A stretch of DNA of 64,000 nucleotides, taken from NCBI GenBank assembly GCA_946894095.1, contig OX335651.1, positions 6,656,501-6,720,500 of the forward strand, written 5' to 3'. Positions 1,653 to 41,974 of the stretch are shown here, one piece after another; within the stretch, counting starts at the first letter, position 1; each line of letters opens with the position of its first letter. Made by a program: the position numbers and the translations under genes. The stretch is from Incurvaria masculella. Taxonomy: Eukaryota; Arthropoda; Insecta; Lepidoptera; Incurvariidae. The notes under the pieces are model-generated. The model had not been told where the DNA came from and ran no database searches. It saw only the letters and a program-made list of their open reading frames with translations.

Positions 1653-1750
1653 CTTGTAAGTTTGCAAGTTATCGACTCTACAGAGCAGCGCCGCTTCTCT
1701 GCCGACTGGCACCGTGATGTTAGCGATTGCGTCCACGAAAGACGGCAAAT
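1653..1750 (-). CDS. DIP (Dpr-interacting protein) family, exon 3: N-terminal half of Ig domain 1
   Basis: On the minus strand, acceptor TTCCAG (ending 1751) precedes 98 nt, then donor AAG|GTGGGT (GT at 1652-1651). The phase-1 frame encodes LPSFVDAIANITVPVGREA followed by ALLCRVDNLQTYK. This matches the start of the first Ig domain of DIP/IgLON proteins: P-x-F, a strand with N-I-T-V, the VGREA turn, the first Ig cysteine (LLC) and the L-x-x-Y-K just before the usual V-A/G-W-L. The exon ends in phase 0 after YK, so the Trp-bearing strand and second cysteine must lie on the next exon, outside the window. DIPs are surface Ig proteins that bind Dpr partners and help neurons choose synaptic partners. 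Which DIP paralogue this is cannot be told from 32 residues; a lachesin-like member is the main alternative. Confidence 0.85.
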
Positions 1751-2099
1751 CTGGAATCACACAATATATATTAAATTATCTTATTAATTTAGCTCTATTT
1801 ATTGTTAAGGTTAAATCATCATACTAGTAAAAGGTCTATGTTCAGCTGTGACATGTCAAAAATGTTCGCAAAAATTCGATTTATTACATTGTTTAATTTC
1901 TTTTATTATTTCTGAACTTTTTCGTTCAAAATCACATGCATCAAATGGGACAAGCCTCACTGGATCGTGCAGCCATAGATCCACTACCACGCCACGCCAC
2001 CCACGACGAAATACGTTCGCCAAGTCAGTGTCTACGACCACTAACCCTCCAAAAGTTCGAGAACCCTCTGCAATTATGTTTGCAGGTGGCACGCTTACT

Positions 2100-2279
2100 A
2101 TGCCCGGCGGTAAATAATGGTACAACGGACGCTGGAAAGAGATAACCGGCTAGTTTCGGCTTTGTAGAGCGTCGTCGCTGTCACACGCTGTTACTCAGTG
2201 CCTGTGTGTGTACTACGTGCGACAGAAGTGAGGCTGTCTCTTTCCAACGTTCGATGTGTATTATTTTATGCCGGGTGCT
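2100..2279. mobile_element. Small MITE with ~36-bp imperfect inverted ends
   Basis: Left end GCCCGGCGGTAAATAAT (about 2101) through 'acgctggaaagagata' is mirrored by 'ctctttccaacgt' through 'attattttatgccgggtgc' at the right end (about 2240-2279). Clean target duplications were not resolved. Confidence 0.5.
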
Positions 2280-2321
2280 TTAAGTTGGATTACGCTTAGC
2301 GCTCCAGCATTAATTAACAGC

Positions 2322-2844
2322 ATCTTTAAAACGCTTACAGAGTTTCCTTCCAATCCGTACCAAAATCACGTTGACGCAAACTCTCCTACTTCCAATTTTA
2401 GATTATGCAGATGTGTGCTTTTTGGATTTAACTGAAGTTCTCCTTGATAAATTGGAACGTTTACAGAATCTCTGCATTCGCTACATATATGGTCTGCGTA
2501 AATACGACCATGTATCGCAGTACCGTCGTCAGCTTAAATGGCTACCCATTCGTTATCGAAGGAACTGTCACATACTCACTCTTCTTTTTGGGGTCTTAAA
2601 TAACCCTCACTCTCCTGAGTACCTTCGTTCCCGATTCTTGCACCTATCTTCACACGGTCTCCCTCTACGTTCTAGCGACGACAGTATCCTTGCGATTCCC
2701 CGCCATACAACTTGCTTCTTTTCCAACTCCTTCACTGTACATGCAGTACGTCTGTGGAACTCGTTGCCTTCCTCCGTCCGCTCTTGTCAAACTATCGGCT
2801 CTTTCAAGTCGAGAATCAAGGAGTTTTATTTAAATGAAATCTGA
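2322..2844 (+). pseudogene. CR1/Jockey-type LINE, C-terminal end of reverse transcriptase
   Basis: The open frame continues from about 2325 to the stop at 2844. It shows the thumb and C-terminal signature of non-LTR reverse transcriptases: LDYADVCFLD, DKLERLQNLCIRYIYG, KWLPIRYRR and the tail LWNSLPSSVRSCQTIGSFKS. The palm with the catalytic Y/FADD is absent, so this is a 5'-truncated copy. A ~400-bp 3' UTR and a short ATTC tandem tail at 3260-3283 follow. The minus-strand fragment at 21350-21990 belongs to the same family. Exact clade (CR1, Jockey or Daphne) is not settled. Confidence 0.8.
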
Positions 2845-3290
2845 ATATACTATTTTTATCGCTGTACATCTTTCTTTTTATTATCATCAAAGAAATAGGT
2901 ATATATTTTTGTTTTGTTTTAATTTGTTCCTAAATTGTGGATATACAATATATATTTTAGTATATTGTATTATATATATTAGTTTATTTTATTCAAAGTA
3001 TGCTTGTATTGTCATGTAAATTATGGTTTATGTATGTTTATACTGTATGTATATATTTTTATTTTATTTGCTTTATTATTTTCCTTTCAAATTGCTATTG
3101 TGTACCTACCTACAGATATTTTAGATTGTCTCTCCTCATCACCCCAAAGGTTGACTGGAAGAAATCACTCCTAGTGATAAGTCCGCCTTTGTGCAATTTT
3201 GTTGTTGTTTCGAATTGTTTTTGTAATTGTACTTGTTTTCTATTGCACAATAAAGAATTTATTCATTCATTCATTCATTCATTAATATCT
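2845..3290 (+). mobile_element. LINE 3' UTR with ATTC microsatellite tail
   Basis: AT-rich 3' UTR ending in 'aataaagaattt' and five or so ATTC units. Short tandem tails instead of poly(A) are typical of CR1-type LINEs. Confidence 0.6.
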
Positions 3291-3299
3291 CTTTCTTTT

Positions 3300-4422
3300 T
3301 AATCTAAAGCCATTAATATTTGCTACATGCGCGAACTTGACTATCTTAAGCTTGCCCTATTGCAACCTTTGTTTGAGTGGTATCATATTGAACTATGCAT
3401 AGATTAGCATACTTCTTATTTCATTATTTGAAGGAAATGTTTACTAAATTGATGATAATGCATGGTTGAAAATCTAAAGAGGATAATTTATACAGAATAA
3501 ATGATGAATAATGGATTCCAAGAAAATTAAAAAATCACTCGGCCGGAATTAATTGCCAAGGGATGACGCTTCCGCCTTGGAGCGTTATCCTGCAGGGATA
3601 ACCATTATTTTGTTTATTAAAGTTGAGTTTTTTTATTTGTGTCTTTAAAAACCTTCCGCGTAAGGCGCGTTTTACGTAAGCTGTTTACGAAATGATTCTT
3701 GAAAGTATTTTTATTGAGCTGTTAACAACCTGAACACAACAGCATTTTATACGCATTTATTAATTTGTAGTACATAACGATAGCTTTGTTCTCACTTAAA
3801 AAACATCTCAATGCTAAACTACCCCAATTAAAACTCTTAAATGAATACTCATTTCTGTTTATACTTATTATAATCTATTAATTTTTTTAAATATTTTTTT
3901 TACCATTTCAAAACGATTTATTTAAATAAATCGATTACTACAAGCATATATAGGCGATATAGTAAGCAGATCGAAAAGTGTTCTAATGATGAAACTACGT
4001 ATTGTTCATACCAGAAATTAGAATATGGGGTAATCGGAAAGAAAATATTTTCGGCATTTTTTTTATCGAAAATTAAAATATGACACAAAAGTCAGCTGAA
4101 TTATATTTACCAAGCGCAAATAAAGGTATGAATGGAGGCTGAAATATGAACTCGAACTTTCACACTCCGTTGAGTACAAAAAGTGGGAGCAAGCCTCCGC
4201 CCCGATCTTTTGCATACGGAGAGGTTGCCCGCATTCCGCCGCCTTACATCAAAAGTCGTAAGCGGAACCCACATAAGTAACAATGTGAAGTATACGCGAG
4301 CAAAGCAACCACTCTGAAAATCCTTTTAACTATAACGTACGCGTATACGTACAGGGTTTGAGACGATGTGTCGATGCCTCATATCATAGATTCAAAGCTT
4401 TTTTCACAAACCTTTTCATCTT
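3300..4422. other. No gene recognised
   Basis: AT-rich intron sequence with one short GC-richer patch (3536-3600) that can fold into small hairpins. No open frame with protein-like content. Confidence 0.5.
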
Positions 4423-4426
4423 TTAA

Positions 4427-4969
4427 GGCGGCCCAACCCGGCGGGACTAACTCATTCGCGGGCACGGTACAAAACCGTGCTGTCGCGCTCTGAGACCTTC
4501 TATGTTTCAAAGAAAAAGACAGGCTCCGTGATGAGGTAGATGCTTATTGTCCACAAAAAAGACAACGTGCATAGTGTAAGATTTGGTAAGATTTACGAAA
4601 ATTTTAATTACATAACGACTTATAGCTAAAAGTAAACCACGACCGCTGTAGTCCAAAATCTAACAGATACCAAATAGATTATAAATATTGATTAAATAAG
4701 CTATGTCTGATGACTAATCTTTTTTAAGATGTTGTTACATTATCATTGCGTAATCCACCTCCAAAGTTATTGTATAAAACGCGCGAAAAATTCGAACTTT
4801 CGGACCTTATAACTTAGAAACCAAAGACAATTTTACAATGCCAATGGTTATCAAACATCTAGTTCGATCAAATAAAGCTATTTTGAGCAAAATTTTGGAT
4901 CTCTGACAAGAAATATGGGCGTGATCTTCTTTCCCCTTTTGTATGGCGAGATGAGCGGGATGGGCCACC
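4427..4969. mobile_element. TTAA-flanked MITE, family 2, copy 1
   Basis: TTAA at 4423-4426 and 4970-4973 flank ends that are inverted copies of each other: GGCGGCCCAACCCGG on the left, GGGATGGGCCACC on the right. A second copy in opposite orientation lies at 10452-10935. TTAA targets are typical of piggyBac and Kolobok elements; the superfamily is not decided here. Confidence 0.7.
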
Positions 4970-5442
4970 TTAAGGCTCTATATGACGCTAACCTCTAACT
5001 TTTTAAGTTTATTTTTATTTTATATCAGCGTCGGTTAAGCATAAAGACTGGTAAAAAATCGTAATATCAAAGTTTAGACTATTATCTTGTGTATGACTGT
5101 AAAATGGTTTTATTAAGTTGCTTATATTCTTTAAAAAAATATGTTTGTAAACACCTATTTACAAGTTTTTACGTGGTTTTCAAACCGGCGCTTGGAAACT
5201 ATAAATGATTTCGGAAATTTTCTTTTTTGTGGTACACGATCACATCTTTATCTACTGAATAAGCGTGAAAAATATATTAATTCACTTAAGAAAGTAGACT
5301 TTACAGGTCAAAAACCTAAATTTTGCTTCGTCGCGCTCAATTTTTACGAGCATACAACAATGAACCCTAACGCAAACTCAATGCTTCCGGAGATCACCAA
5401 CATCGTTTGTTTGCTGAACGCTGGAGTCAGTTGGAGCCTTAA

Positions 5443-5773
5443 GAGGATAATGAGGTGATCATGTCCCATACAGTGGCTCGTACCTGATTCCTGAGTGAAA
5501 TTAAGAAATATTTTTCAGATAATTTACACATAAAATGATTCAACTGTGAGATACGTCTGTGCGTATCTGTTTTTTGATACATCAACTTATATCACTGATA
5601 TACGCCCCTAAACATGTGTACATCATGGATACACGTTAAGTTATCAAACAGACCAAAGCGTACAGACGTATCTCCGTTGATTTATTTAATGTGAAACATT
5701 TCACAATATCTTTAATTTTACCGCGGAATCAGACACGATCCATTATATGGAACTTGATCACCTCATTATCCTC
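5443..5773. mobile_element. TTAA-flanked palindromic MITE, family 1, copy 1
   Basis: Exact TTAA at 5439-5442 and 5774-5777. Termini GAGGATAATGAGGTGATC and its reverse complement, with arms that pair over much of the 331-bp element. A diverged second copy is at 55951-56295. No coding capacity. Confidence 0.8.
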
Positions 5774-5805
5774 TTAAGTGGTCGCTCATGAAAAATGATT
5801 TCGCA

Positions 5806-5870
5806 GCCCCCGTGAAAGTTGAAAAGCCCATGGACGTCGTCGGGCACCTCCTGTCATACGCCATCGAAAT
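5806..5870 (+). mobile_element. Short LINE 3' fragment (same family as 39400-39800)
   Basis: 'gtgaaagttgaaaagcccat' and 'gacgtcgtcgggc' match the sequence just past the LINE C-terminal coding end near 39770-39805 and 28455-28485. Confidence 0.4.
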
Positions 5871-7292
5871 CAACAAAATAAATCTATGTTTTCGCTGTGC
5901 GTTTATCTGCAACAGTTCCATAGAACTACTTTCGAGCAAATGGATTCTAACATAAAATAAATCTGCGACTTGTTTGCTTGTGACAGATGCGTATTAAGTT
6001 GGTAATTAAAAAAAAATTGGAGACAGCGTGTCTCGTAGTAGGCGCGCTAGTTGGCGTACCTCCTTTGTTTTCGGTGTGAGTTTTGTGGAGCAGCACGCTC
6101 TGCTTCTTATTTTCTTATCTTAAGCCATCAATTTCAATATTATAGTAATGTTTTAAATAAAAAAATATAGAATAATATAAAATATAATTATATAATAATA
6201 AAAATTAAAAGTAAATGTTTTTATGAAAGTTTACTAGCATCGGAACCTATTTATTTCTATTTTCAAATAAAATATTTACTGGAGCAATAAAAAAGCAATA
6301 AAAGTTTACGTTTTATCATTTATTGAAAGTAATGAATACATTTATTTTTGCTATTAGTTTCTAGTCAGGCTTTTAAGAAATCTATCCATTCATATAACTC
6401 ATTGGCAAATACAGCTAAGAATAACTGGCACAAAAATTCGCTGGAAATGTGTCATTTATTGATCCGTTTTTCATCTATTTCGGGCCGAAAAAAATCCTTT
6501 GGTCCTTGGATTTGTTACGATCCCCCAACAGCTTTCAGGCATTCAAAGCATATATTTCATATCTCTGTCTCCATATGTCGCTCGCATATTCCCCAGCTAC
6601 GCAGATATCGGATTTCGATGTATTGCTGAGCAACCGGAGGAGTCCTTTCACATCGATCGGCAACAGAAAGGAACAATAAGTCGCGGATAGGAACTTGTGC
6701 CGAGCCAGCACGCAGCGGCCAACTGCTAATGGAACACTTGTGAGAGCTGAATCGGATCGTATTTTACCGAACTGCGAAAATGTTTGGAAGGAAAAATTAA
6801 TCTTCTTTTTTTATGGGTTCCTTAAAAAAAGTGTCTTTAGGGACTTACTCAGTTATAAGGAAGTGGTCGGTTTTTCCACCACTAAAATTGATTTCGTTGT
6901 AAAACTAAAAATGATTTTTTCAGATCCGATAAATTTTTGAATGGAAGTTTCTGCGGCTACGGGGCGCGATCGGATACTGGATGGGTGCCTTTTTATTCGT
7001 TGAGCCTAGTTGCGGTTTATATCCCACGCCAAACTGTAGGTTTCCTTCCAAGCTTATTTCAAGTAAATGTAGTCAAAGAGGCAATTACCATAAATCCAGT
7101 ACAATGTTGATGCGCAAGCACTGAGTTTTTATGTGGTAAGTTGGGCTGGTATCATGCCACACCCACGGTAATAGCCATCCCAATAAAATTTTTTTTTCAC
7201 TTTTTCGAAAGGCGTTTTCCTTGGGAATAAAGAATGTCTTAGGCGTTAATGGGATATGTTTTTTATATGTTTACTAATCTAGTTTACTTTTC
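5871..7292. other. No gene recognised
   Basis: AT-rich sequence; open frames near 6348-6940 overlap in several phases and show no protein family features. Confidence 0.45.
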
Positions 7293-7556
7293 CTAGATAC
7301 CATGGAAAATTATCTTAATTACTTTGATGACAATTTCGCAAAAAAACACCAAGAAAGTTCAGGGGAGAAAGACAACAAGGTGATACATCCCGATGCTTCT
7401 ACTCTGGATGAGTACACATGCGTGAAATTGGCTTGTATCAAAGCAAAGGTTGCCCTGTTGCAGAGCACAATGGATCAAATGTTGAGCCCGCATATAATAT
7501 TTGGCCGAATTTATCACAAAAAGGTCGACTTTCATGTGCGCGGTGCGGGATCATAA
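7293..7556 (+). other. Unidentified plus-strand open segment, possible exon
   Basis: A good acceptor-like tract (acttttcctag, ending 7296) precedes an ATG at 7302 and an 84-codon open frame with mixed, protein-like composition: MENYLNYFDDNFAKKHQESS, then DASTLDEYTCVKLACIKAK. A donor-like AAG|GTGATA lies at 7377-7385. I do not recognise a family. It is antisense to the DIP-like gene inside intron 2, so it could be a decayed transposase piece, a nested gene or chance. Confidence 0.25.
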
Positions 7557-7738
7557 GCCTTTTCAGAGAATGCGTGAGAGTAAATTTTACGATCAGCGAA
7601 TTTCTGTGCGCGAATCGTAAAATAATCTGATTCGAACATACAGGGCGGCAACTTAGCAATAAAATTGTTCAGAAAACTTATTTGGGGCAGTTTCACCTGA
7701 AAACCAAAATTTTCTCGCATATGTATCCGTGTCATGTT

Positions 7739-7885
7739 CGTCCGTGTTTTCCATCAAGTTCAATGTAGCCGAGGCAAGGAAGGTTCTAGCATGGCACCTA
7801 GTTCCCATGTGGTGTGTTAGGCTAATATCTAACGTTCAGTTTGGTATTAGGCATCAATGTCCAGTTACATAAAAAAAGGTATAAA
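7739..7885 (+). mobile_element. SINE, 3' half only
   Basis: Shares the body block 'ttcaatgtagccg' to 'catcaatgtccagttacat' plus an A-run with the other SINE copies. Confidence 0.65.
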
Positions 7886-7962
7886 CATTCACTGAACACG
7901 TTCTTATGGAGAGCTGTAGACTCTTACTTATTAATTGACATACGAAGCTAAATTAAATATAC

Positions 7963-8136
7963 AAAAAAAACGGTCAAGTGCGAGTCGGCCTCGCACACGA
8001 AGGATTCCGTACCATCGTACAAGATTTAACTTATTTTTTTATTTTTAAATTTTACTATTTGTTGTTATAGCGGCAAAATAAATACATAATCTGTGAAAAT
8101 TTCAGCTGCAACTATTACGGTTCATGAGCCCGATAA
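7963..8136 (-). repeat. GGGTTCCGTAC repeat, partial
   Basis: Shows the family blocks 'cggtcaagtgcgagtcgg', 'ttccgtaccatcgtacaag', 'tgttgttatagcggcaaaat' and 'tcagctg', then breaks off after 'ggttcatgag'. Confidence 0.6.
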
Positions 8137-9220
8137 AATGTGGTTAAAAAACCTTCCCGTGCAACACAGCAACCCCTTGTGGTGTGTTGTATGCGCAGTC
8201 AGATCAGTGGTTTCGAAGCATATGGAGAATAAATTAGGAAGTTTCCGTACAAATTTTAAAATCAAATGAAATTAAAACATCATTTATTTGCTTTTTGTAC
8301 ACAAAATAATGGCAAAAAGGAACACTTGATATGGCCAAATACCAAATTTGAGGTACGGAACCCAAAGACACTAAAGTCAGATAGGCTGGCCGTTTGAATC
8401 TAGCAACAACGTTTTACAATCATCTGCAAAGGCTGGACCAATACTAATTCCGCCACCCACTAACTCAGTACCCGCGAAAGGTATTCTTGCTGATTAACTA
8501 CAAGCCTTGCAGTATATTCATGACGTAGTTATTTTTACAGGGCTCTTTCTAAAATTGTGGTGTCCTTGCTTTACAGTCGATTTTAAACATATCAAATTCG
8601 TTGAAAAGAGAGACGTAGTTCCTTGGTACGACAAACTATATTTTACTTTATATCGCTGTTTGAGAGTGGCATACGTGATATATTTGCCTCATAAATGTGG
8701 CTTAGCATGGGTTCTCTTTGCGGTGGAATTTTCTTGTCAGTAGACGTGAGCCTCGTATAGAGGGGGGAAATTAAGTAGATAGGGACAACATACAGTGTGC
8801 TTACATGTGTGAAAAATGCAGTACCAGTGCGCGTAGAAAAAGGTTCTGTATCTTGGTGGGCGACTCTCGCTTCAGGGTTCACCAAGGATAATCACAGACC
8901 CACTTCTCTTTACTACACCGCAGCGTGAGTCACTTGAATAGGGGTCTAAATGAGCTAGGTTCAAGACCGAATATACCAGATTGCTGAGACTTCGTTGGTC
9001 CCCCAAACGTTGGAGCGGGAAGAGACGACGGAGCGAGGAGAGATCTCGGGGTGCTTTGCATGTGAGCAGACTAAGCGACGCTGGACCTAGATAACATTTC
9101 GGGCAAGCCAGACCAACGCCATTAATATCTCGGACAGCTTGAACCAAACATTTCTTGGAGGGCAAAAACGATGCAATGAATTTCATATTGTACGGTCATG
9201 ATATATGAAAAATCTAATGT
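8137..9220. other. No gene recognised
   Basis: Mixed sequence. The minus-strand open frame at 8872-9186 is long for its context but shows no domain and has no partner elsewhere. Confidence 0.4.
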
Positions 9221-9224
9221 CAGT

Positions 9225-9350
9225 TCCAGCGAGCATGGCAGGACGGGAGTAGCAAGCGAAACCTTAAATACAATGGGGGCAACGCATGCGAGTGAGTTCG
9301 CTTACTAATTCGCTTACGAATGCGGATGACTCCATGGTTCGAAAGCCAAG
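9225..9350 (+). repeat. Fragment of the inverted-repeat element seen at 14155-14432
   Basis: Shares 'cagcgagcatg', 'acgggagtag' and the 'gttcgctta' blocks with the element near 14155-14270. Confidence 0.4.
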
Positions 9351-9412
9351 CAAAACTCTAGGTGGCGTTGTCTACATAATAGATAGTATAGGATTAAATC
9401 TGAAGATGTATG

Positions 9413-9785
9413 GATGGACTCGGTAGCTCACGCGACGCGATGCCGTTCGACAATTGGGGAGAGGCAACACTGGGCGCGGTCGGGTTCTAGATGTGTAATC
9501 TTTTCAACCGTTAATCGGTTCGGATGTGGTTCCTGTTGTATATATTCCTTATGTGTGGTATAGATGACTAGACGGTAAGGTAAAACCCCGCCCGGATCGG
9601 TACCTTGCGCGGAATATAAAATGCTCGAAGCGAAAATGAAAATGGTCCACGTTTTCCATCCAGCTCAGTATAGCCATGCGATATAAGGAAGGTCCTGGTA
9701 AGGCACCTTTTTCTACGTTGTATGTTAGGCTTATATAATTACAGTAGGTGTGTCATCAGCCATACATGTCCAGTTTCATAAAACG
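9413..9785 (+). mobile_element. SINE, diverged full-length copy
   Basis: Head 'cggtagctcacgcgacgcg', middle 'gatcggtaccttgcgcgg', then 'ttttccatccagctcagtat' and the 3' end 'catacatgtccagtttcata'. More diverged than most copies. Confidence 0.65.
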
Positions 9786-10447
9786 ATGCAAATAAACCTT
9801 TTCATTGGTCGTATCAGTGCACAGAACCCCTAGAAAGTATACCATCTACAAAGCTGAATATTTATTTCGAAACTTACGACGCTATCGTGATATATCCATT
9901 CCCAGAAGTAACATCATGTCGCTAAGAAGGTGTAAAGATTTCCCCCAGAGCATTTAACCGCGCCCTACTCGTCTCGCGAAGTCTCGAGCGCGCAAAGTAC
10001 GACGAAAATGTTCGTGAAATGTGTGCGAAGTCTGGCAAAACGACGGACGATAAAATTCTGAAATTGCCATTTGAGGCGTGATCGGCCAGGATTGTTCGCG
10101 CGACCAGCATGAATTGTGAGAACAGGAGTGGATAAAAGTCGATAAGCCTAATGTATTTAGTATCACCATCGATAGAGCGATGCGGAAATTACATGGCCCC
10201 ACTGTGATTTGGCTCCTATAGCTCAGAGAATTTTGTTACGAAACCGTGCGTCACATATTGTACGTTTGGAGGTGTCCTACATTCCCTATCCGCCACACAT
10301 ATCTAGGAGTCGATACCTTAAAAATAACATCACTTTCTTTGCTCTATAAAAGCATAGATAGGGTTGTAGTTTGTCTGAGTTCGCAAGCAAATAAAAATGA
10401 CTAAACAGTTAGGGTCTACCACCAAATACTGATTTGCTTAATCCTCA
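9786..10447. other. No gene recognised
   Basis: Two overlapping minus-strand open frames near 9922-10202 are in a GC-richer patch but show no family features. Confidence 0.4.
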
Positions 10448-10451
10448 CATT

Positions 10452-10935: not shown

Positions 10936-10939
10936 TTAA

Positions 10940-12234: not shown

Positions 12235-12242
12235 ATTGAAAG

Positions 12243-17047: not shown

Positions 17048-17101
17048 CTCCAGGTATGAGGCTGGTCTTTTCACTAAAGCTACTGCTGAGGTCTGTAGCA
17101 C
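17048..17101 (-). CDS. DIP-like adhesion gene, exon 2: 54-nt linker exon
   Basis: On the minus strand a pyrimidine-rich tract ending in CAG (17104-17102) is followed by 54 nt and a donor GAG|GTAATG (GT at 17047-17046). The length is 18 codons, with phase 1 at both ends. One of the three frames contains a stop; the phase-1 frame from exon 1 is open and reads ATDLSSSFSEKTSLIPG with flanking split codons. Its last base plus the first two bases of the exon at 1750 make GAT (Asp). Serine/threonine-rich linkers between the signal peptide and first Ig domain are plausible in this family. No homology is claimed for the linker itself; support comes from the splice sites, the phase match on both sides and the open frame. 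Confidence 0.68.
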
Positions 17102-17564
17102 CTGAAAAAAATAAAATTATGCTTAGATTGACAGGACACATTAACAGAATAAAACTGTACGTAATTTTATTGTTGCGTTCTTGAGATCATCCTAACTGTA
17201 ATTATATCTGATCAATTGAAAAAATAGTATATGTAAAAATGATTCAAAATTCTTTAATACGCTACAAAAAAACAATTTACAAAATAAAGTACAGTGCAAT
17301 AACAACATTAGTAGGGCGCAAAGGCGGGCTTATCCCTCGTAGAGATTTCGTCCAGCCGATCTTTGGCTGTTTGAGAAGTTCAATAGGGATATATTCGTAG
17401 GTAGTAGCGGTAGGTTTGGTTTGTGAGTTTGATTATACTTATTATAATAACCTAAAACTAACTACACATTCGTAACATACGAACATATATTAATTATGTA
17501 ATAAACTTAATTGTAAATATTATATCTGGTTTAGCCATAAATAAACCTACATATATCTATACTT

Positions 17565-25170: not shown

Positions 25171-27117
25171 GCGCCGCCACCGAGATTCACACTCTTTCAA
25201 ACTTTGCAAGGAGCAGCTCAAGACCTTTACGTGATGCACGGACGATTAACTTGTTCACAAACAATCCAGAACTGTGCAACGTTTCTGCGAATATAGTGAG
25301 AAGGCGCCGGAGCGGTGGCGGTTGCAGACAGAGGGAGGCCTTGCTAGCCGCCATAAGTCGACAGAGGAGCTTGATATGTACAAACCTAATTACAGCCGCA
25401 CCGGGTTATGGATTTGTTCGGCGCGGAGCGTGAATGGGAACGAGGCATCGACATACCAAAGCAATATACTGACAATCAGAGTACTTCTCGATACAAATCC
25501 GGCGCCGCCACCGAGATTCACACTCTTTCACACTTTGCAAGGAGCAGCTCAAGACCTTTACGTGATGCACGGACGACTAACTTGTTCACAAACAATCCAG
25601 AACTGTGCAACGTTTCTGCGAATATGGTGAGAAGGCGTCGCCGGGGAGGTGGCGGTTGCAGGCAGAGGGAGGCTTCGCTAACCGCCATAAGTCGACAGAG
25701 GAGCTTGATATTTACATACCTAATTACAGCCGCACCGGGCTATGGGTTTGTTCGGCGCAGAGCGTGAATGGGTACAAGGCATCGACATACGAAAGCAATA
25801 GACCGACAATCAGAGTACTTCTCGATACAAATCCGGCGCCGCCACCGAGATTCACACTCTTTCACACTTTGCAAGGAGCAGCTCAATACCTTTACGTGAT
25901 GCACGGACGACTAACTTGTTCACAAAACAATCCAGAACTTTGCAACGTTTCTGCGGATACGGTGAGAAGGCGCCGCCGGGGAGGTGGCGGTTTCAGGCAG
26001 AGGGAGGCCTCGCTAACCGCCATAAGTCGACAGAGGAGCTTGATATTTACATACCTAATTACAGCCGCACCGGGCTATGGGTTTGTTCGGCGCAGAGCGT
26101 GAATGGGTACAAGGCATCGACATACGAAAGCAATAGACCGACAATCAGAGTACTTCTCGATACAAATCCGGCGCCGCCACCGAGATTCACACTCTTTCAC
26201 ACTTTGCAAGGAGCAGCTCAATACCTTTACGTGATGCACGGACGACTAACTTGTTCACAAAACAATCCAGAACTTTGCAACGTTTCTGCGGATACGGTGA
26301 GAAGGCGCCGCCGGGGAGGTGGCGGTTTCAGGCAGAGGGAGGCCTCGCTAACCGCCATAAGTCGACAGAGGAGCTTGATATTTACATACCTAATTACAGC
26401 CGCACCGGGCTATGGGTTTGTTCGGCGCAGAGCGTGAATGGGTACAAGGCATCGACATACGAAAGCAATAGACCGACAATCAGAGTACTTCTCGATACAA
26501 ATCCGGCGCCGCCACCGAGATTCACACTCTTTCACACTTTGCAAGGAGCAGCTCAATACCTTTACGTGATGCACGGACGACTAACTTGTTCACAAAACAA
26601 TCCAGAACTTTGCAACGTTTCTGCGGATACGGTGAGAAGGCGCCGCCGGGGAGGTGGCGGTTTCAGGCAGAGGGAGGCCTCGCTAACCGCCATAAGTCGA
26701 CAGAGGAGCTTGATATTTACATACCTAATTACAGCCGCACCGGGCTATGGGTTTGTTCGGCGCAGAGCGTGAATGGGTACAAGGCATCGACATACGAAAG
26801 CAATAGACCGACAATCAGAGTACTTCTCGATACAAATCCGGCGCCGCCACCGAGATTCACACTCTTTCACACTTTGCAAGGAGCAGCTCAATACCTTTAC
26901 GTGATGCACGGACGACTAACTTGTTCACAAAACAATCCAGAACTTTGCAACGTTTCTGCGGATACGGTGAGAAGGCGCCGCCGGGGAGGTGGCGGTTTCA
27001 GGCAGAGGGAGGCCTCGCTAACCGCCGTAAGTCGACAGAGGAGCTTGATATGTACATACCTCGTTACAGTCCCACCGAGCTATGGACTTGTTCGGCGCGG
27101 AGCGTAAGTGGGAACGA
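25171..27117. repeat. 335-bp tandem array, about 5.8 units
   Basis: The landmark 'gcgccgccaccgagattcac' recurs at 25171, 25502, 25836, 26171, 26506 and 26841 (spacing 331, 334, 335, 335, 335). The units starting 25836, 26171 and 26506 read identically. They are much GC-richer than the flanks. Each unit is open in more than one frame, giving overlapping open frames of up to 173 codons. The period is not a multiple of three, so one protein frame cannot run through the array and coding is unlikely. The origin (satellite, LINE 5' UTR subrepeat or captured sequence) is unknown. Confidence 0.95.
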
Positions 27118-29722: not shown

Positions 29723-29725
29723 AAC

Positions 29726-29843
29726 AATGTCATATAAGGAAGGTCCTGGCATGGCACCTAGTTCCCATGTGGTGTGTTGGGCTAATACCATGACAGAACT
29801 TGTGGTATTAGCCATCCATGTCCAGTCACATAAAAAAAAAACT
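29726..29843 (+). mobile_element. SINE, 3' end only
   Basis: 'aaggaaggtcctggcatggc' to 'ccatgtccagtcacat' with an A-tail to about 29840. Confidence 0.7.
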
Positions 29844-31980: not shown

Positions 31981-32042
31981 ATTAGTAATTGTTTGCCGTC
32001 TGTTTATATCAATCAAGTTTTTGAAGTTCGTCGCATTTCAAA

Positions 32043-33139
32043 ATGGAAAAAAATATTGAACAAAGAATTTGTTTGAAGTTTTGTGTTTCCAACGAAATCT
32101 CTTGTGCTGATGCATTCAAAATGCTACAAAAAGCCTACGGGGACTTTGCTCTCTCAAAAACAAGAGTATACCAGTGGTATTCTTCGTTCAAAAATGGTCT
32201 CAAAGAAGTTGACGATGCACCTCGTCGTGGACGCCCTTCAACATCAACTACCGATGATAACGTCGAAAAAGTTCAGAAATCGTACTCGAAAATCGTCATG
32301 CAAGCGTCAGAGAGATAGCTGGTGAGCTCAACATCGCGTATGGATCGGCACAGCATATTGTGGTGGATATTTTGGGCATGAAACGCGTTGCAGCACGACT
32401 TATGCCAAAAGACCTGAACTTCGTACAAAAACAGTACCGTAAGACAGTGGCCCAGCAGGTGATTTCTGAGGTAACGAATGACCCTAACATGATGCAACGC
32501 ATAATTACTGGTGACGAAACGTGGGTTTACGAATATGATGTTCTAACTACCCAACAATCATCATAGTGGCGCTATAAAAATGAACAAAACCCGAAGAAAG
32601 CGCGTCAAAGCCGATCAAAAATAAAGGTAATGCTCACTGTTTTCTTTGATTATCGCGGCGTTGTTCATTATGAGTACGTGCCTACTGGTCAAACAGTCAA
32701 TAAGTAGTACTACCTGGCCGTAATTAAGCGTTTGAGATATGCTGTGCGTAGAAAACGACCGGAATTGTGGCAAAACCACTCATGGATCTTGCACCATAAA
32801 TATGCTCCGTCTCACAAAGCGCACATCGTGACCGATTATTATTTGACCAAACATACTGTAAATACAATCCAACAGGCACCGTATTCTCCGGATATGGGAC
32901 CATGTGACTTTTTCCTGTTCTCAAAACTTAAATTACCCCTTCGTGGAAAGAGATTTTCGAGCTTCGATGAAATAAAAGAAAATGCGACGAAGGCATTGAA
33001 AGCCATTCCTTCACCGGGCTATCAAAAGTGTATGGAAGAATGGGTTAAGGCCTTTCCGACCCATATAAAGTTGTTTGCACACATAACGCAAAAAGTATTG
33101 CAATTTAAGCCACGAATTAATAATAAAAGTTTAATATAG
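32043..33139 (+). pseudogene. Mariner transposase, inactivated
   Basis: The N-terminal helix-turn-helix half is clear: MEKNIEQRICLKFCVSNEIS, LSKTRVYQWYSSFKNG and RRGRPSTSTTDDNVEKV. A frameshift near 32275 moves the frame; the rest runs from about 32330. In-frame TAG stops follow QQSS (32563-32565) and VNK (about 32706). Of the DDD triad, the first Asp (GDETWVYEYD) and third Asp (PDMGPCDFFLF) are kept. The second, normally in HDNAPSH, reads HKYAPSH, so the catalytic Asp is lost. The C-terminus is intact to the stop at 33139. The family's usual length is about 345 residues, which matches. Confidence 0.93.
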
Positions 33140-33148
33140 TCATATTAC

Positions 33149-33309
33149 TTGCAGCGAAAAAAAATTTACAATTTCAGGATTATTGGTTTTGTTACAATTT
33201 ATTTAAATACGATTTTTATTTAACAGCGTCATCTAACGGTGTAAAACTTCTAATCGGCAATTACAACGAAACCATTAAACCTGAAATTGTGAATATGTTT
33301 TCGCTGCAA
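33149..33309. mobile_element. 161-bp MITE in the mariner 3' UTR
   Basis: Near-perfect inverted ends TTGCAGCGAAAA ... ACAATTTCAGG and CCTGAAATTGT ... TTTTCGCTGCAA. Flanks suggest a short TAC duplication, not certain. Confidence 0.65.
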
Positions 33310-33534
33310 CTACTATGGCTATATTTAATATTTTTGACGAATTCGTGCCTTAAAGTGCAATACTTTTTGCGTTCTGTGTAAAAAAAACATTGTATGGGTC
33401 GGAACATCCTTAAGCGTTGGCGTATGTACGTACATCGCTTCGGACGGTTGTTATTTTTAAGGTGATAAAATAAATGTATCCAAAAATTAACACATTTTTT
33501 TTAAATTATTAATTCCCGGAACTTTCTGATCATA

Positions 33535-34200
33535 GTCAGTATGTTACGTTTAAAACCTAATGTCCGTTAAAATTCTATAATGTTTTTTCCTTGGAGGTTT
33601 CGAAGAAGAAGAAGGTTGCACCCGTATCGATTGTATCGGGACCTAACCGTTATATACACATAACTGTAAAATTTCATGAAAGCTAATTATGAATGGTGAT
33701 TTCAAGGCATGTACGGCTGTGTACATGACGTTTGTTTTAAAAGGACTACGTTAAAAATATTTTTTTGTTAGACGTGCTTAGTCTAACTATAAAGCAACTA
33801 AATCCGTGTTCATCAACTATACAATCAATATGTTGTTGAAATTCAAAATAAAACCGGGTGGGTGTAATTGTTGTTTTTTTTTTAATTAAATTTAACGACA
33901 GCCCAACCAATAACATTTATATATAAAGTACTGGATTATTTTTGGGCATAAACTGCATTGGTAATATTTCAAGCAAAATTAAATTAGTAATCCTGATACT
34001 GGAATTAGTTCCAATTGGGTCTTCTATAGGTCGCATATATCAGCAATTACCTGTGTTAACTTTAAACCAACCAAAAGACTTCATTTTCGTTAAGTAACAA
34101 TACTCCTATCTAATCGTAGGTGCAGCAAGAATACATCAATTTATAATGCAAGTGTAAAATCACAACTTCATCTTTAAGCCAAACAACAATGTCATTACGT
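33535..34200. other. No gene recognised
   Basis: AT-rich intron sequence between the mariner and the interrupted MITE. Confidence 0.4.
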
Positions 34201-34300
34201 TTAAGGCGCTAGGACTGGCCAACTACTCGCGCCATACAAATGCACTTTTTAACAAATGTAATAATATGTAGTGAAACGCTTCAGAAAATCCAAACAAAAA

Positions 34301-35094
34301 ACAAATTATTTAAAAATATAAAAAACCCGACTGCGTAAAAAAATGTAACTTAAAATTGACTTAGTAAAGGAACTGAAAAGATAGAAACAAGTTGAAAAAT
34401 TAAATATTTGTTGTGTTTGAATGATCATGGTTGACAGTGTTTACAAACGCAGTCGGGGGCATCAAATAGCCCCAGTACGTTCCATAGTAAATGACTAGCG
34501 ATTTTATGGATTATTTCGGTGGAGCAAGAAAATACGTGGTGGGGGAAGTTCCAATATCCTATCTTTCATTTTTATGTCTAAAGTGAGGTTTTTTTTCTCG
34601 TTCTCGGTGTCACCAATCATCATGAAATTTACATAGGTACACTTTCAATGAATTTAATAACAAAAAAATATAAATCATAGTTAATGTATTTGGTGCACAA
34701 TATGAATTATATAATGATATATTATATATTTCCCAATACATTCCATTATTAATGACTAGCGATTTTCTTAGTGATATGGGTATAGCAAAAATATACTTAT
34801 TGAGACAAATTATAATCTTCTAACTGTCATATAATAAATACGAAAGTAAGTTTGTCAGTTTCGCGAACTCAACCGACCATCGTGAAATTTGCATAGGCAC
34901 ACCATTGAAAATATAAATCGTAGTTAATGTATCTTATGCCTCCGACTGCGTTTGTAAACACTGTCAACCATGATCATTCAAACACAACAAATATTTAATT
35001 TTTCAACTTGTTTCTATCTTTTCAGTTCCTTTACTAAGTCAATTTTAAATTACATTTTTTTACGCAGTCGGGTTTTTTATATTTTTAAATAATT
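34301..35094. repeat. Palindromic subelement with ~160-bp inverted arms
   Basis: 34301-34458 is mirrored by about 34938-35094, including CCCGACTGCG, 'gaaacaagttgaaaaattaa' and 'gatcatggttgacagtgt'. Between them are two related blocks sharing 'aatgactagcgattt'. It matches 48133-48955 in the right copy. Confidence 0.85.
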
Positions 35095-35191
35095 TGTTTT
35101 ATTTTAATTATTTTTAGTTTTCGTAGAGCATGCATTTATCATTTAAATATCTGCACGTTAATAAATTCCAACGAAAGTAAGGTTAGGTATT

Positions 35192-35570
35192 ATTATGGAA
35201 CCTGACATGGATGGCTAATGTAACACAACTACCGTCATGATATAAGCCTAATTCAACAAATTCCAGAAGGAATTAGGTGACAGGCCAGTACCTTCCTTTA
35301 CACACAATCACGGCTGCACACGGATACCATGGGTGGAAAATACATACAATGATCTATTGCCACTTTGTCCATAGTTTTTCCTAATGCGGTGATACCAACC
35401 CAGGCGGGATTAACCCTGTCACCTAGTAGGGTAAGGTGACCTACAGTTTTACATGGGTTCCGAACCATGAACAACTCGCAAGATAAAGTTGTGTATAACA
35501 GATGCGAGGATTTGAGCCCATAACCTCTTGCATGAAAGGCAATATTTTAGTCCCTACACTACGAGGTGTA
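35192..35570 (-). mobile_element. SINE inside the composite element, left copy
   Basis: 'ggaacctgacatggatggct' to the tRNA-like head 'tacacctcgtagtgtaggga' read on the minus strand near 35572-35553, with a B-box-like 'gggctcaaatcc'. The partner in the right copy is 47470-48037. Confidence 0.75.
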
Positions 35571-36020
35571 ACAAATAGAGTTTTTTGATTGATATTAAAA
35601 CAAAACTACATTTTCTAAAAAATTCTTCATGTTATCTTTAAGGCTTTAATGAAGTCATCAGTTCATAGAATGAGATTCCCTCATTCAACGAATTTTGATC
35701 ATATGCCGATATATACAAGGTTTTAGTGGAGGTATGGTCCAAACGTTAACGTATTCCTTGGCATATTTGAAACAAAAAGGATAAATATTTTATTTGTAGG
35801 TATTTAAAATGTATGGGGAAAATCTTTTTCAAGTCATACGACAAAATATCTTCTACCTTTTTAGCTCCAAATATGCCGAGGAATACGTGGTTAGCTTTTG
35901 GACCATATCTCCGTTAACACCCTATATATGGTTTTTTTAGAATCTCCCTCTCATCATCGTTGATTACAGTTACACTAAATTTATAAGCGAACAGTTCGAC
36001 ACTCAAATCCTGTGGTTATA

Positions 36021-37062
36021 TGCAAGGTCCGTCACTCGAAGTGTTACCAATTGAAAATGATGTTATTTAGTTAATTGAAGAACGGTTCGTTAAAAATTAT
36101 ATCACAATAAAACATTTAATTTTAAGACAATAATTGTTATTGTTCGATATAGCCTCCTTTGATCCATAGATAAGAGCTTTCTGAGACGATGCTGAGTATT
36201 GTTGGAACGGCCAGCGTTTTGTACTGCATTGTTTACACGTGCACATGGTATGAGCGCCTCATTTAACACCTTTTGCACACACTTGCTGGTTGACTTTGAC
36301 GCCCTTCTCGATAAACACGAGTGAATAGCGACCATTTGCGGTCACTGCAGCCGAGACCATAACAGAAGCGGGCGCTTGCTTACGAACGGGAACTCGATCG
36401 TCTAAATTCTCGTTTTTTGCCCTGTAGCCAAACACGAAAATGTTGTTTGTTTATATACTGTTAGACAGTAAACATTTTTTCATCAGAAAATACAATGTTT
36501 TCCAGATCGCCACGCAAGACTTTCATTGCTTGAGCTCTTTGTAGTCGAACTGCCTTCTGCGCTGAACTAAGATGCTGTAATTTTTGTATCTTGTTGGTAG
36601 GGCTTCAGTTGCATTTATTTTTATTTCAGTATGCGCCGATTACTTGAGTCGGGTATTGTCTGACTTTTCGCAAATTTTGCAGAACACTGGTGAGGATTTC
36701 CTTGAATTCGAGCCTTTACCTTTCTAACCATATCATGTGATACTGCTATTTTCGGATGACCGCCTCTATGCCGTTAAGTAATGCTAGGTTATAACGCTTA
36801 ATGGTTCGATGCACTAACATTTTGTTCACATGTAAATGTCGGAGCTCCCGAACGATGAGTGGTTGTGATTTTCTGGTCAAATACAAAACGATCACAATGT
36901 TAGGTTTAATATCCATTGCGAAAATTTATTATACAATTCAAATTAGTTCCCGCTCTTTTTGCCCACTTAAAAACAATGAAACAGATTGACGTTTCACCAA
37001 AATTTGGCGCACTGTCATTATTATTTTGAAAATAGAAGTAACAGTTCAAGTGACGGACCCAG
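36021..37062 (-). mobile_element. Tc1-like element inside the left composite copy
   Basis: Inverted ends AAGGTCCGTCACTCGAAG (36025) and CAAGTGACGGACCC (about 37047-37060), flanked by TA-containing sequence. Transposase on the minus strand. Confidence 0.7.
36102..36916 (-). pseudogene. Tc1-like transposase, decayed (left copy)
   Basis: The minus-strand start codon at 36916 corresponds to that of the right copy at 46112. The C-terminal part remains open: VAIHSCLSRRASKSTSKCVQ overlaps another frame, then KVLNEALIPCARVNNAVQ and a tail to 36102. The right copy shows the N-terminal helix-turn-helix better. Frameshifts and stops break the catalytic region. Confidence 0.65.
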
Positions 37063-38448
37063 TAGTAATCGCTTTGATCACAGGATTTCATCCATTTATA
37101 AACTAACTGCTAGTTAAAATTCAATAATCTCCATAATAACCATGATTGTAATATTTATATCCACTACTTCATAAGACTGGAAGTTGTCTCTTGACTGACA
37201 GCTTTGAATGTGAGTCAAAAGCATTGCTAAAGCCATTTTTATTTAATTATTGAGCTAGTTAAGTTCCAGTTTCACAGTTTAGAACTTTAACTGGATGCGG
37301 CGAAAGAGACCTGGATTCATCGTTTGCAAATATATGTGGGCCCGAGGTCCACAATCGCCCGATCGAATGTGTTACCTTGGAGCTTATAAACTGTTACATC
37401 CCAACTGAGCGTTTATTGCTTTTCTTGCCTCCAAAGCCCATCAAAATATAACGTTCATGATTTAATCCGTACATGAACTCCTGGTTTATTATTTTGAATA
37501 ATATAACGTGTTAATACTATGTGATATATGATGATAAACCCAACTTTGGCAAAGCCGTGCTTTTCCTTCCCACTGCTCCCAAGGACGCACGGTTAAAGAT
37601 CAGCGATATTATGATGGCGATCATATTTTATGTACCCTATTTAACATAGGTCCTCATCAGGGGGCTGACGACATCTTCATGGAAAGTTTTCCTATCTTTG
37701 GTAAAGCTTTTAGATATTATCAGATTGATACCGATTTTGGGCACCACAGTATCTCGGCACTGTAGGGTCGCCCTCTTGTGGAACAAGCGGACCTTCCCCA
37801 GCGTGACACCCATTGACAACGGAAGTATGGATTTATGAGCTGTGCAGGTGCAGAATTCTGATAGTAAAGCAATGATGGTGATATCGGTCTATGCGGCGAC
37901 CGAGAATGTCGAAAATCTATCTGACTATCGCCCGGATCCACGACTTCCAGTTACAGTCATCCCAAAGTTATCTTTCGGTTACACCATATAAATATGCAAT
38001 GTAACCGAAACAACATTCCATATAGCTGGAGGTAGTGAAAAGAGGAGTATATGACCTAAGTTGGTGTGACCAGCACGCTTGCGTAAACAAAAATCATTTG
38101 AATAAATTTTTAACATTGAATATTTTGATGTTTTTGGAATTTCTTATTCCAAATTACATTTAAACATATAAGTTGCATACCTTTTTGTACACTATTTAAA
38201 AAACCCTTTAGTTTGATACCCCACTCGATAGGTTTCAAGAAAAAATATATTTGAAAACACATAATTTGGCGCCAAAAATCAGCCATGTTTTTTTTTTATG
38301 ATTTTGATATAGCCAGTGTCACTTTCATAATTAAGACGAATGTAACGATACCTCTCAAGCTAAAATCCATCAAGCCGTTTAGGCTGCAGGGGGCGACAAA
38401 GAAATATACATACATACATACACTCGAAAAACATAACCCTCCTTCTTT
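37063..38448. other. Unidentified interior of the composite element
   Basis: Collinear in reverse with 44580-45986. A 73-codon minus-strand frame (37941-37720) is kept in both copies but I recognise nothing in it. Confidence 0.4.
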
Positions 38449-38754
38449 CGCAGTCGGGTAAAAAGTTGATTTTTCTCATTAGAAATCTGAAAGTAATTCG
38501 ACTTCTAGATATAGCATAAACAAAACATTCCATTTGCTATTAGATTTCTACATTTAGTCAAAAAAGTTCGGAAATGGACACCGTTTCCGCAATGTATTTT
38601 GTATAGAAAAAGGTAACATACATTAACGAAAATAAGTTGATTAATAGACAAGGAATCATATATTGTAAGAATGACACTTATAATCGTCAGACTTAGTTAG
38701 TTAACTTGGGGTGCCTCGTCTAACTTTGCGATTTGGCTAGTACCAGGGCCTTAA

Positions 38755-39380
38755 ACGATTTGCGACCATTTTAATTGCATAACAGCAAAATAGAATTCAT
38801 GAAACGACCAAAATCAACCAGTCCACTAATTGTCTCGAGATTTCATTGTGTCTGTACTGCGAGCAGTCTTGCAGCAATAAAACAACAATTTCGGAGACGA
38901 TAAAGCGCTTTAACGGCTCCAGAAACCATAAAAACCCAGTAAAGGGCACCCTTTGCGCATAGTTTTAATAGGTCGGTCGCTCCTGGAGCAGATGCTTAGC
39001 GTAATTAAGGAAGCCCAATTTTTACAACTTTGTGATTTATTTATCGAATTCATTTCGCTCTCACCCTTCTACGGTCATAATTACAGAGAGTTGAGGTAAT
39101 TGGCCTCGATTCTTTTTTCAATTTGTGAAATAAGAATTACTGGTTATGGAAGAAGAATTGTTTAAATGAAATGTACATTTATTGACTTCTAACTCTAAGA
39201 TTGGTTGGTTACGGATCACCTTTATTTAAACATGTAAGGCTTTTCTAATAGCTTCTTCGTGGCAAATAAGAAGTAAAATGTCTACACACATTAAAATACG
39301 AATTGTTTTTTGTATTATCCACTGCGCTCGGAATTGTCATATTTTATTATTTGTAGTGCAATTGCATTCGTAATTCTATT
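38755..39380. other. No gene recognised
   Basis: Unassigned intron sequence up to the LINE fragment. Confidence 0.35.
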
Positions 39381-39386
39381 CTTATA

Positions 39387-39940
39387 TTGTTTGTCGACCC
39401 TTCCAATACCAGAGCTCATAGATCGAATCCTTGCCCCGTTCATGCATGCATTCAATGGTTTGGAACCGTGCATCTCTCTCTGTGTTCTATCGTCTTCACC
39501 GTGGAGAATGCTCATCGGAGCTGCATAACGCTGTCCCTCCGTCCCCTTTCTACCATCGCACAACGCGGAACAGGCAGAAAATTCACTCTTTCACTGTCGA
39601 CATTCCAAAAATCAGAACCAACCGATCCTCTAGGTCCTTTATCTATAGGTTCGGTAAACTATGGAATGCACTCCCTGTCGAGTTATTTCCTCCAAACTAC
39701 AACCTGGGATCCTTCAAGCATGGTGTGAAGAAGTACCTGGCCGGCCGGCATGGTTTTCGCAGCACCCTCAAAAGTTCGAAAGCTCATGGGCGTCGTCGGG
39801 CAACTTAAGAGGTCCTGACGTACGCTATATGCCACGATTTACATTAAATAACCTACCGTGGTATATGCCCAAACCCCCACCCCCCTTTCTCCTTTTTCAC
39901 GTAGTAATTTAAATACTATAAAATATTGATTTATTTAGAA
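39387..39940 (+). pseudogene. Non-LTR retrotransposon (Jockey-like), C-terminal end
   Basis: Frame 39431-39808 encodes PPSPFYHRTTRNRQKIHSFT, then FIYRFGKLWNALPVELFPP and YNLGSFKHGVKKYL, the standard C-terminal end of many LINE reverse transcriptases. The palm is missing (5' truncation). A short AT-rich 3' part ends near 39945 with 'aaataaatggctgtttttc'. Smaller relatives lie at 28325-28490 and 5806-5870. Confidence 0.8.
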
Positions 39941-39950
39941 ATAAATGGCT

Positions 39951-41310
39951 GTTTTTCGTCTATTTCATCAATTTGTGAACGGTACAAGGAAGTGAATTGG
40001 CAGAAAAATAAGCTCACATGTAAGCAAAAATAAGCTTAGCATTTGTTAATATTATATCCCCCGTCCTCCTAAATCGGTCGCGTACTAATGGTACGAATTC
40101 TGAATTATTTTGAGCAAATGGATAATATATTTCCTTGAGTTATCTCTTACGGATAAACCTATCGGTTCGATGATAAAAATAATATCAAAAATAAAATATC
40201 ATTAATCCTGTAACGTTTTTCCTGTCCTATTTATAATTAAAAATTAAATAGTTAATATTAATTAATCAATTATTGTAATATTATGTGTAAAAACATATAT
40301 ATGTTTTTATTTAAGTTTTCCTGTCTTCTGTTTACAGTCTTCGCATGAAAAATGTAAAAAACGTCAACAACAATACCATATAAATATACAAAATACCATA
40401 TGTCAGAATATTCCTAACCTAACATTTCTACTCTCTCACCCTTAAACAAACTCTCTAACCTCTTTTTTAAAAAGAATGAGTGGTTCATCTTAGATGCTAA
40501 TCGTGTTAGTTTCCATTTCGTTAATGAAGTCATACAAAAGACGTGAAAAATCATTCGCTTCCCAATTTATATGTTATGGAAGTATGTAAATCGTGTTATA
40601 TATAGCTGTTAAGTTTTCTGCTTATTATAAACAATATTTCAAACTCAAATACATCACACAAAATGGTATGTTAATACATGTACGTATACATCTTCTAAAA
40701 CACAAAAAAATAAACCATAATGACATTTGAAGGTTAGTAACTTATATGCAAACATTTAATGCAAACCTGATCTGCGTACTTACGCAAGTAGAGTAAAGAG
40801 TAAGAGTTGAATCAATTTATTTACAAGACTACACATTTTTGAGATACAAGCCATGGTGTAAAAAAAGACAATTAAAATGTGATTTGTATAAAGGCCATGG
40901 CTCAGCAAAATCCGGGATGGATATAATTCCACCAGTCGCTGGTTTTCCGCCGCCACCACCTAGTTGCATTATTTTAAACACTTTTTAAACAAGTTCAACT
41001 TATCACATTTTATATATAACACCTTATATTCGAAAGAAAAAATTAATTAAGAAGCAAACAGCAGGAACAGGTAAGTAGGCCTATTCTTGGATTTCCGTGA
41101 TCAGAAATCAGGAATATTTTAGTCGAGAATACCGCTTTAATACTCGTACCGCTTTAATAGGTTGTCAAAGTTATCTTTCCGTCGAGAAAACCGCTATGAA
41201 AGTGGTTTTCTCAACCGGAATATTCCTGATTTTTGTGCACGAAATTCCAAGAACAACCATTTCTGTCATCTATAATAGGTTCTACAATAGGTATAATAGT
41301 AAATTCTCCC
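39951..41310. other. No gene recognised
   Basis: AT-rich; an imperfect inverted repeat at 41105-41235 ('atcaggaatattttagtcga' against 'caaccggaatattcctgatt'). Confidence 0.4.
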
Positions 41311-41311
41311 A

Positions 41312-41857
41312 GGGTCCTGATATTCCGGGAGGTCACGACATTTTTGGTCACGATAAGGTAAATGGCTGAATCTGGGTTCACAGGTTAGAGACCAACCCTC
41401 TGATGCTAAATATGTCAGTCTGCCTGCGCCAAGTGGTTGCGTTATCTACATTGGCTACACAAAATATATGTTGGTATATACATACTAATTAATATACTGA
41501 TTATCTGGACCTATCGAAATCTGTTAATTATGCAACAATAACTATGCATAAATATGCATTCGGTTTTTTAATCCAATACTTAAATTTAACTGAAGTTTTA
41601 TCTGTAACATAAATCGCCTATAACTACGAAATGCTACCAAAGATTTCATGCTTCGTTATTTTCAGCTATTTACCTAATCACGTATATTTTTTGTCACGAT
41701 AACTATTTTTAAAGCGCCTTATCTAAGAAACGCAACCACTTAACTCAGGCAGACCGACACATTTAGCATCAGAGGGTTGGTCTCTATCATGTGAACCCTT
41801 TTTCAGCCATTTACGTTATCGTTACCATTTTTGTCGTAACCTCCTAGACTATGACCT
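41312..41857. mobile_element. MITE with ~140-bp inverted arms
   Basis: 41312-41460 is mirrored by 41715-41857, including 'gtaaatggctgaa', 'gagaccaaccctctgatgct' and 'aagtggttgcgt'. It lies just downstream of the GTGAGT donor of exon 1, inside intron 1. Confidence 0.65.
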
Positions 41858-41901
41858 AAATAGCTATATTGAAACCATATAATATAAAGTTGTAAACTCA
41901 C

Positions 41902-41974
41902 TGGCACCGAACGCCCCCCGACTCAGCAGGAGGCACAGAACAATTGTGCCGCCACTCATCACTGACGGTGGCAT
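41902..41974 (-). CDS. DIP-like adhesion gene, exon 1: signal peptide
   Basis: On the minus strand an ATG at 41974-41972 opens 24 codons plus one base, then meets a strong 5' splice site (A|GTGAGT, GT at 41901-41900). The peptide has a polar start, a hydrophobic core (TIVLCLLL) and small residues near GAFGA, so it reads as a secretory signal peptide. The exon ends in phase 1. It joins in frame to the 54-nt exon at 17101-17048, the split codon giving Ser. A second in-frame ATG (41959) begins MSGG and may be the real start. The frame is also open upstream to 42088, so the start is not fixed. The role (sending the protein to the cell surface) is inferred from the downstream Ig exon. Intron 1 would be about 24.8 kb. 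What would change this call is a transcript with a different first exon. Confidence 0.62.

What the first reader, a model, noticed from the sequence alone, without database searches (positions are those of the whole stretch)
1653..41974. A DIP-type synaptic adhesion gene hidden as three tiny exons across 40 kb of transposons
No long open frame marks this gene. Three minus-strand segments each have good splice signals, and their phases lock together: exon 1 ends with one base, exon 2 is 54 nt in phase 1 to 1, and exon 3 takes two bases then runs 32 codons. The junction codons are AGT and GAT and no stop appears. Exon 3 is a clear Ig-domain start of the DIP/IgLON kind.
Basis: partly seen in the sequence, partly recalled or inferred. 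Interest (0 to 1): 0.88.

Follow-up and report, generated by a model that had tools for sequence, protein, structure and literature searches.

The report
Divergent insect DIP nerve-wiring gene
The window holds the first, tiny exons of a known kind of insect gene, a DIP cell-recognition protein that nerve cells use to choose partners; the rest of the gene lies next door and looks intact, but the middle one of the three exons is not proven.

Summary
In detail: the three minus-strand segments are where stated, have usable splice signals and join without a stop into 75 residues. The DIP reading is right. Exon 3's best PDB match is Drosophila DIP-theta (E 6e-7), and the rest of the gene lies just outside the window on the same strand: five more Ig exons in phase and a candidate last exon with a GPI-like tail. 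The model has 9 exons, 60.4 kb, 388 residues and all six Ig cysteines. The ectodomain matches DIP-theta best (311.6 bits; eta 278.3, alpha 256.2) but is divergent: identities 68 of 103 in Ig1, 48 of 96 in Ig2, 30 of 94 in Ig3. Exon 1 is likely. Exon 2 is only plausible: candidates of its splice score occur about 0.8 times per 40 kb, skipping it keeps the frame, and an ATG upstream of it gives a rival first exon. No other insect genome or RNA was available. It is a new member of a known family. Side finding: DIP exons in this genome often carry tandem copies.

The parts
41902..41974 (-). Exon 1, coding part: MPPSVMSGGTIVLCLLLSRGAFGA plus one base; signal-peptide-like
   Evidence: only first-exon candidate at its score level; its 301-bp surroundings are single-copy in the genome; GC 62%, reached by 1.4% of local windows
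17048..17101 (-). Exon 2, 54 nt, phase 1-1 (candidate cassette)
   Evidence: unproven. Genome-wide copy search did not complete; no second copy within 224 kb
17048..17141 (-). Rival reading of exon 2 as a first coding exon: MCPVNLSIILFFSGATDLSSSFSEKTSLIPG
   Evidence: same frame open from 17186 through the acceptor
1653..1750 (-). Exon 3, phase 1 to 0: first half of Ig1 (LPSFVDAIANITVPVGREAALLCRVDNLQTYK)
   Evidence: same phases in the three paralogues whose exon 3 I read (L002-L004); continues into exon 4 at G000:C11:6649312-6649105, outside the window

Best explanation
The window carries the 5' end of an open, divergent DIP gene of the theta/eta kind in what looks like a moth or butterfly genome (552 Mb, 31 contigs; the order is my inference). 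Shown: exon 3, five further Ig exons on the same strand and in phase, family-wide intron positions, and all six Ig cysteines. Likely: exon 1 at 41974-41902 supplies the signal peptide, and the last exon supplies a GPI-anchor signal. Plausible: the 54-nt exon 2 adds a short linker before Ig1. Inferred from the family: the protein sits on neurons by a GPI anchor and binds Dpr partners through Ig1, the domain kept best here, while Ig2 and Ig3 have drifted.
For: Exon 3 to DIP-theta E 6.1e-7. Ectodomain 311.6 bits to DIP-theta, 278.3 eta, 256.2 alpha. All Pfam families over their cut-off are Ig domains. Exons 1-8 in phase with AG/GT edges, exon 9 in frame to one terminal stop, 388 aa. Exon 3 phase in 3 of 3 paralogues read; phase-0 start of exon 4 in 10 of 10 paralogue exons and in L055-L057. 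Exon 1 scans and single copy. GPI anchoring of most fly DIPs (PMC10863630, abstract and passages).
Against: No transcript, no orthologue. Exon 2 is of chance level by splice score. Exons 1, 2 and 9 have no homology support; exon 9 was picked from 19 scan candidates and its GPI-like tail was judged by eye. Long branch (1.3 against a median of 0.32), Ig3 only 30 of 94 identical to theta, and two paralogues are closer to theta over exons 4-8.
Confidence: 0.88

Rival explanations
1. Exon 2 is not an exon or is skipped: exon 1 joins straight to exon 3.
For: Exons 1 and 2 both end in phase 1, so the skipped form is open with one terminal stop. Candidates of exon 2's total score are expected about 0.8 times per 40 kb, and a higher-scoring one lies at 24259-24203.
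Against: Its acceptor is the second best of 3135 AGs on that strand, and its GC is 50% (reached by 16% of local windows).
Confidence: 0.3
2. Exon 2 is the 3' part of a first coding exon that starts at the ATG at 17141 and encodes its own signal peptide; exon 1 belongs to another promoter or to no transcript.
For: The frame of exon 2 is open upstream to 17186 and holds M-CPVNLSIILFF-SGA.
Against: A T-rich splice tract read as codons gives hydrophobic residues anyway; the acceptor there is very strong; exon 1 scores higher as a first exon.
Confidence: 0.12
3. The gene is a decaying DIP duplicate rather than a working gene.
For: Long branch, weak Ig3, degenerate copies of exon 4 beside the true one.
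Against: Nine exons without stop or frameshift, all six cysteines kept, Ig1 conserved best.
Confidence: 0.05

Closest known systems
Drosophila DIP-theta (PDB 6efz, 6eg1)
   Same: Best PDB match for exon 3 and for the ectodomain; three Ig domains, same cysteines; Ig1 66 of 101 identical.
   Different: Ig3 only 30 of 94 identical; two other genes of this genome are closer to theta over exons 4-8 (63% and 62% against 48%).
Drosophila DIP-eta (PDB 6eg0)
   Same: Three-Ig DIP of the same binding subgroup as theta (PMC7195491, passages).
   Different: Lower score (278.3 bits); Ig1 57 of 101 identical.
Vertebrate IgLONs (neurotrimin, PDB 6dlf)
   Same: Three Ig domains; IgLONs are GPI-anchored neural proteins (PMC10863630, passage).
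   Different: Only 119.8 bits, below every three-domain fly DIP in the PDB listing.

Membership tests
DIP (Dpr-interacting proteins) | Three Ig domains each with its cysteine pair | tested here: met
   Ig families with 3 stretches; six of six cysteines aligned to DIP-theta
DIP (Dpr-interacting proteins) | Closer to DIPs than to Dprs, IgLONs or other Ig proteins | tested here: met
   DIPs theta, eta, alpha, gamma lead; neurotrimin 119.8 bits, first Dpr 75 bits
DIP (Dpr-interacting proteins) | Intron positions shared with DIP-like paralogues | tested here: met
   exon 3 phase 1 to 0 in 3 of 3 read (a fourth, L069, not resolved); exon 4 phase-0 start in 10 of 10
DIP (Dpr-interacting proteins) | Signal peptide and GPI-anchor signal | tested here: inconclusive
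   hydrophobic exon 1 and hydrophobic tail of the candidate last exon; no predictor was run
DIP (Dpr-interacting proteins) | Binds Dpr proteins through Ig1 | not testable with these tools
   needs a binding assay
DIP-theta orthologue | Groups with DIP-theta to the exclusion of other DIPs | tested here: inconclusive
   no starred set holds it; two paralogues are closer to theta over exons 4-8; only four fly DIPs were at hand

The most novel reading that the evidence does not exclude
In this genome a mutational process repeatedly amplifies exons in place, and DIP wiring genes are a rich site: 16 of 70 DIP-like exon places carry tandem copies, against 5 of 65 for Cys-loop receptor exons. Copies often keep only one of the two splice edges, so that one spliceable exon remains. 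The window gene's exon 4 (three copies) is a case, and a few arrays in other DIP genes may yield alternative Ig segments.
Probability: 0.3. Interest if true: 0.55.

Novelty: new member of a known kind. Interest (0 to 1): 0.27.

Why it matters
It shows that a gene with no long reading frame can be recognised from tiny exons spread over 60 kb, and it adds a divergent DIP whose recognition domain is kept while the other two domains drift, a natural test of which parts of a DIP are needed. The tandem exon copies across DIP genes may matter more, if they hold in raw reads and in other assemblies.

Tried and rejected
Protein search of 5.8 billion sequences with the 75 residues gave nothing (1 candidate by shared words, none at E <= 1). 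Pfam on the 75 residues alone: none. Pfam on seven window ORFs: 0 of 7 at E <= 0.01, so the non-LTR-like ORF at 2314-2844 rests on my recall. Rfam: none over its gathering scores. tRNA: none. No structure was predicted, as sequence matches settled the fold. That exon 4's copies are Dscam-like alternatives was rejected for this gene: copy 2 has a stop, has lost a cysteine and shows no acceptor at the matching place, and copy 3 is cut short. For the arrays of other genes I read by eye that only one copy keeps both splice edges in L051, L053, L054, L055, L056 and L058; L057 and L063 have AGs that could serve, and L052 was not resolved. Whether exon 2 is unique in the genome could not be tested; within 224 kb it matches only itself. 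A paper search for DIP-theta with Lepidoptera found 0 papers.

Full report
Observation. Joined they give 225 nt and 75 residues without a stop, with junction codons AGT and GAT (in one search I had set the ATG two bases off). The 301 bp around exon 1 give one match, itself, in the 552-Mb genome. The same test for exon 2 did not complete; within 224 kb exon 2 matches only itself.

What exon 3 is. Against the Protein Data Bank the 75 residues match Drosophila DIP-theta best (33 bits, E 6.1e-7, residues 43-75), then DIP-alpha and DIP-gamma. A 33-residue piece of exon 3 finds itself and three further places in the same genome at E 4.0e-4 to 5.8e-4. In those three the exon enters in phase 1 and ends in phase 0 after Y-K, as here. 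A fourth exon-3 place (L069) was fetched, but its edges were not resolved.

The rest of the gene. I read 160 kb downstream on the same chromosome. A translated search found the remaining Ig exons on the same strand (the query was recalled from memory, and one search shows that it is nearly DIP-theta itself). I set the edges by hand: exon 4 C11:6649312-6649105, exon 5 6648426-6648268, exon 6 6647622-6647494, exon 7 6646583-6646446, exon 8 6645896-6645747. Each has AG and GT edges and each junction keeps the frame. A scan for a last exon over 79 kb listed 19 candidates. I chose 6638226-6638069 by eye: it is GC-rich, in frame and ends in a hydrophobic tail as in GPI-anchored proteins. With it the model is 388 residues over 60,406 bp with one terminal stop. 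Introns are 24.8, 15.3 and 8.8 kb at the 5' end and 549 to 910 bp between exons 4 and 8; the last is about 7.5 kb.

Identity. The ectodomain scores 311.6 bits to DIP-theta, 278.3 to DIP-eta, 256.2 to DIP-alpha, 184.9 to a two-domain DIP-gamma and 119.8 to neurotrimin. The Pfam families over their cut-offs are Ig domains. Identity to theta falls from Ig1 (68 of 103) to Ig2 (48 of 96) to Ig3 (30 of 94), while all six cysteines stay. Ig1 is 65% identical to theta, 56% to eta and 49% to alpha. For comparison, fly DIP Ig1 domains average 53% among themselves, and eta and theta are 71% identical (PMC6374074, passages). So it is a DIP, and by Ig1 of the theta/eta kind. Whether it is the theta orthologue is open. 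Over exons 4-8 two other genes of this genome, pieced together from exon matches, are closer to theta (63% and 62%, against 48% here). In a tree of 18 rows, 11 of them only one exon long, this gene has a long branch (1.3, median 0.32) and no firm place. Only four fly DIPs were at hand.

How it works (inferred). Most fly Dprs and DIPs are held by a GPI anchor (PMC10863630, abstract and passages). DIPs and Dprs bind through Ig1, and DIP-theta, eta and iota form one specificity group, listed opposite Dpr1-5 (PMC7195491, passages). A conserved Ig1 with drifting Ig2 and Ig3 fits a protein whose recognition face is under constraint. Nothing here tests binding or expression.

Exons 1 and 2. With simple weight matrices written from memory, and thresholds set from exon 1 itself, exon 1 is the only first-exon candidate upstream of exon 3 on the minus strand; there is none on the window's plus strand and none on either strand of the 160 kb downstream. 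At looser thresholds this fades: 1 against 0, 1, 0; then 3 against 0, 3, 3; then 8 against 1, 12, 9. Exon 1 is 62% GC, which 1.4% of local windows reach. Exon 2 is weaker. Its acceptor ranks 2 of 3135 and its donor 104 of 3570, but 9 open phase 1-1 candidates of at least its total score occur in 448 kb of strand. In the interval between exons 1 and 3 there are 2 on the minus strand, exon 2 included, 2 on the plus strand and 0 in the reversed sequence. Its GC of 50% is reached by 16% of local windows. It can be skipped in frame, and an ATG at 17141 makes it a possible first exon. My estimates: exon 3 0.99, exon 1 0.85, exon 2 0.6.

A side finding. Behind exon 4 lie two decayed copies of it at a spacing of about 251 bp: one with a stop and a lost cysteine, one cut short. 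A copy of the start of the last exon sits 138 bp before it. In the search with DIP-theta I kept 108 of 150 rows as DIP-like by eye and dropped 42, which by place and open-frame length looked like other Ig genes. The 108 fall into 70 exon places, 16 of them with tandem copies within 700 bp. The same count for Cys-loop receptor exons gives 5 of 65 places from all 83 rows. Among 137 kinase rows, with a stricter E-value and only 128 of 629 candidates scored, I see two pairs by eye. The three searches differ in sensitivity, so the rates are only a rough comparison. I read nine places (L051-L058, L063). They are of two kinds: copies after the true exon that keep the donor and lack the acceptor, and copies before it that keep the acceptor and lack the donor, with exceptions or unclear cases in L052, L057 and L063. 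Assembly error is not excluded. Four paper searches on duplicated exons (listings only) showed none whose title or abstract start concerns DIP genes, but that library is partial.

Noticed in passing
G000:C11:6649312-6648682 (minus), about 7 kb below the window's start: Exon 4 of this gene is followed by two decayed tandem copies at about 251-bp spacing, one with a stop and a lost cysteine, one cut short.
   Followed up: yes
L051-L058, L063 and rows: Tandem exon copies at 16 of 70 DIP-like exon places and 5 of 65 Cys-loop receptor exon places; up to nine copies, often with only one copy keeping both splice edges.
   Followed up: partly
G000:C11:6638363 (minus): A diverged copy of the start of the last exon, with its own AG, 138 bp upstream of it; read in phase it ends at a stop without a hydrophobic tail.
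   Followed up: partly
window 25171-27112: Tandem array of a 335-bp unit, 5.8 copies, 97% matches, with open frames of up to 211 aa on the plus strand that match no Pfam family.
   Followed up: partly
window 32708-33136 (+): Piece of a mariner-type transposase (Mos1, E 3.7e-11) in the intron between exons 1 and 2.
   Followed up: partly
window 54476-55380 and 43567-43765: Complex tandem arrays with units of 39 to 147 bp upstream of exon 1.
   Followed up: no
G000:C1:27208490-27221559 (minus): 24 Ig_3 matches in a row, many about 400 bp apart and nearly all open; by recall this looks like a Dscam1 variable-exon cluster.
   Followed up: no
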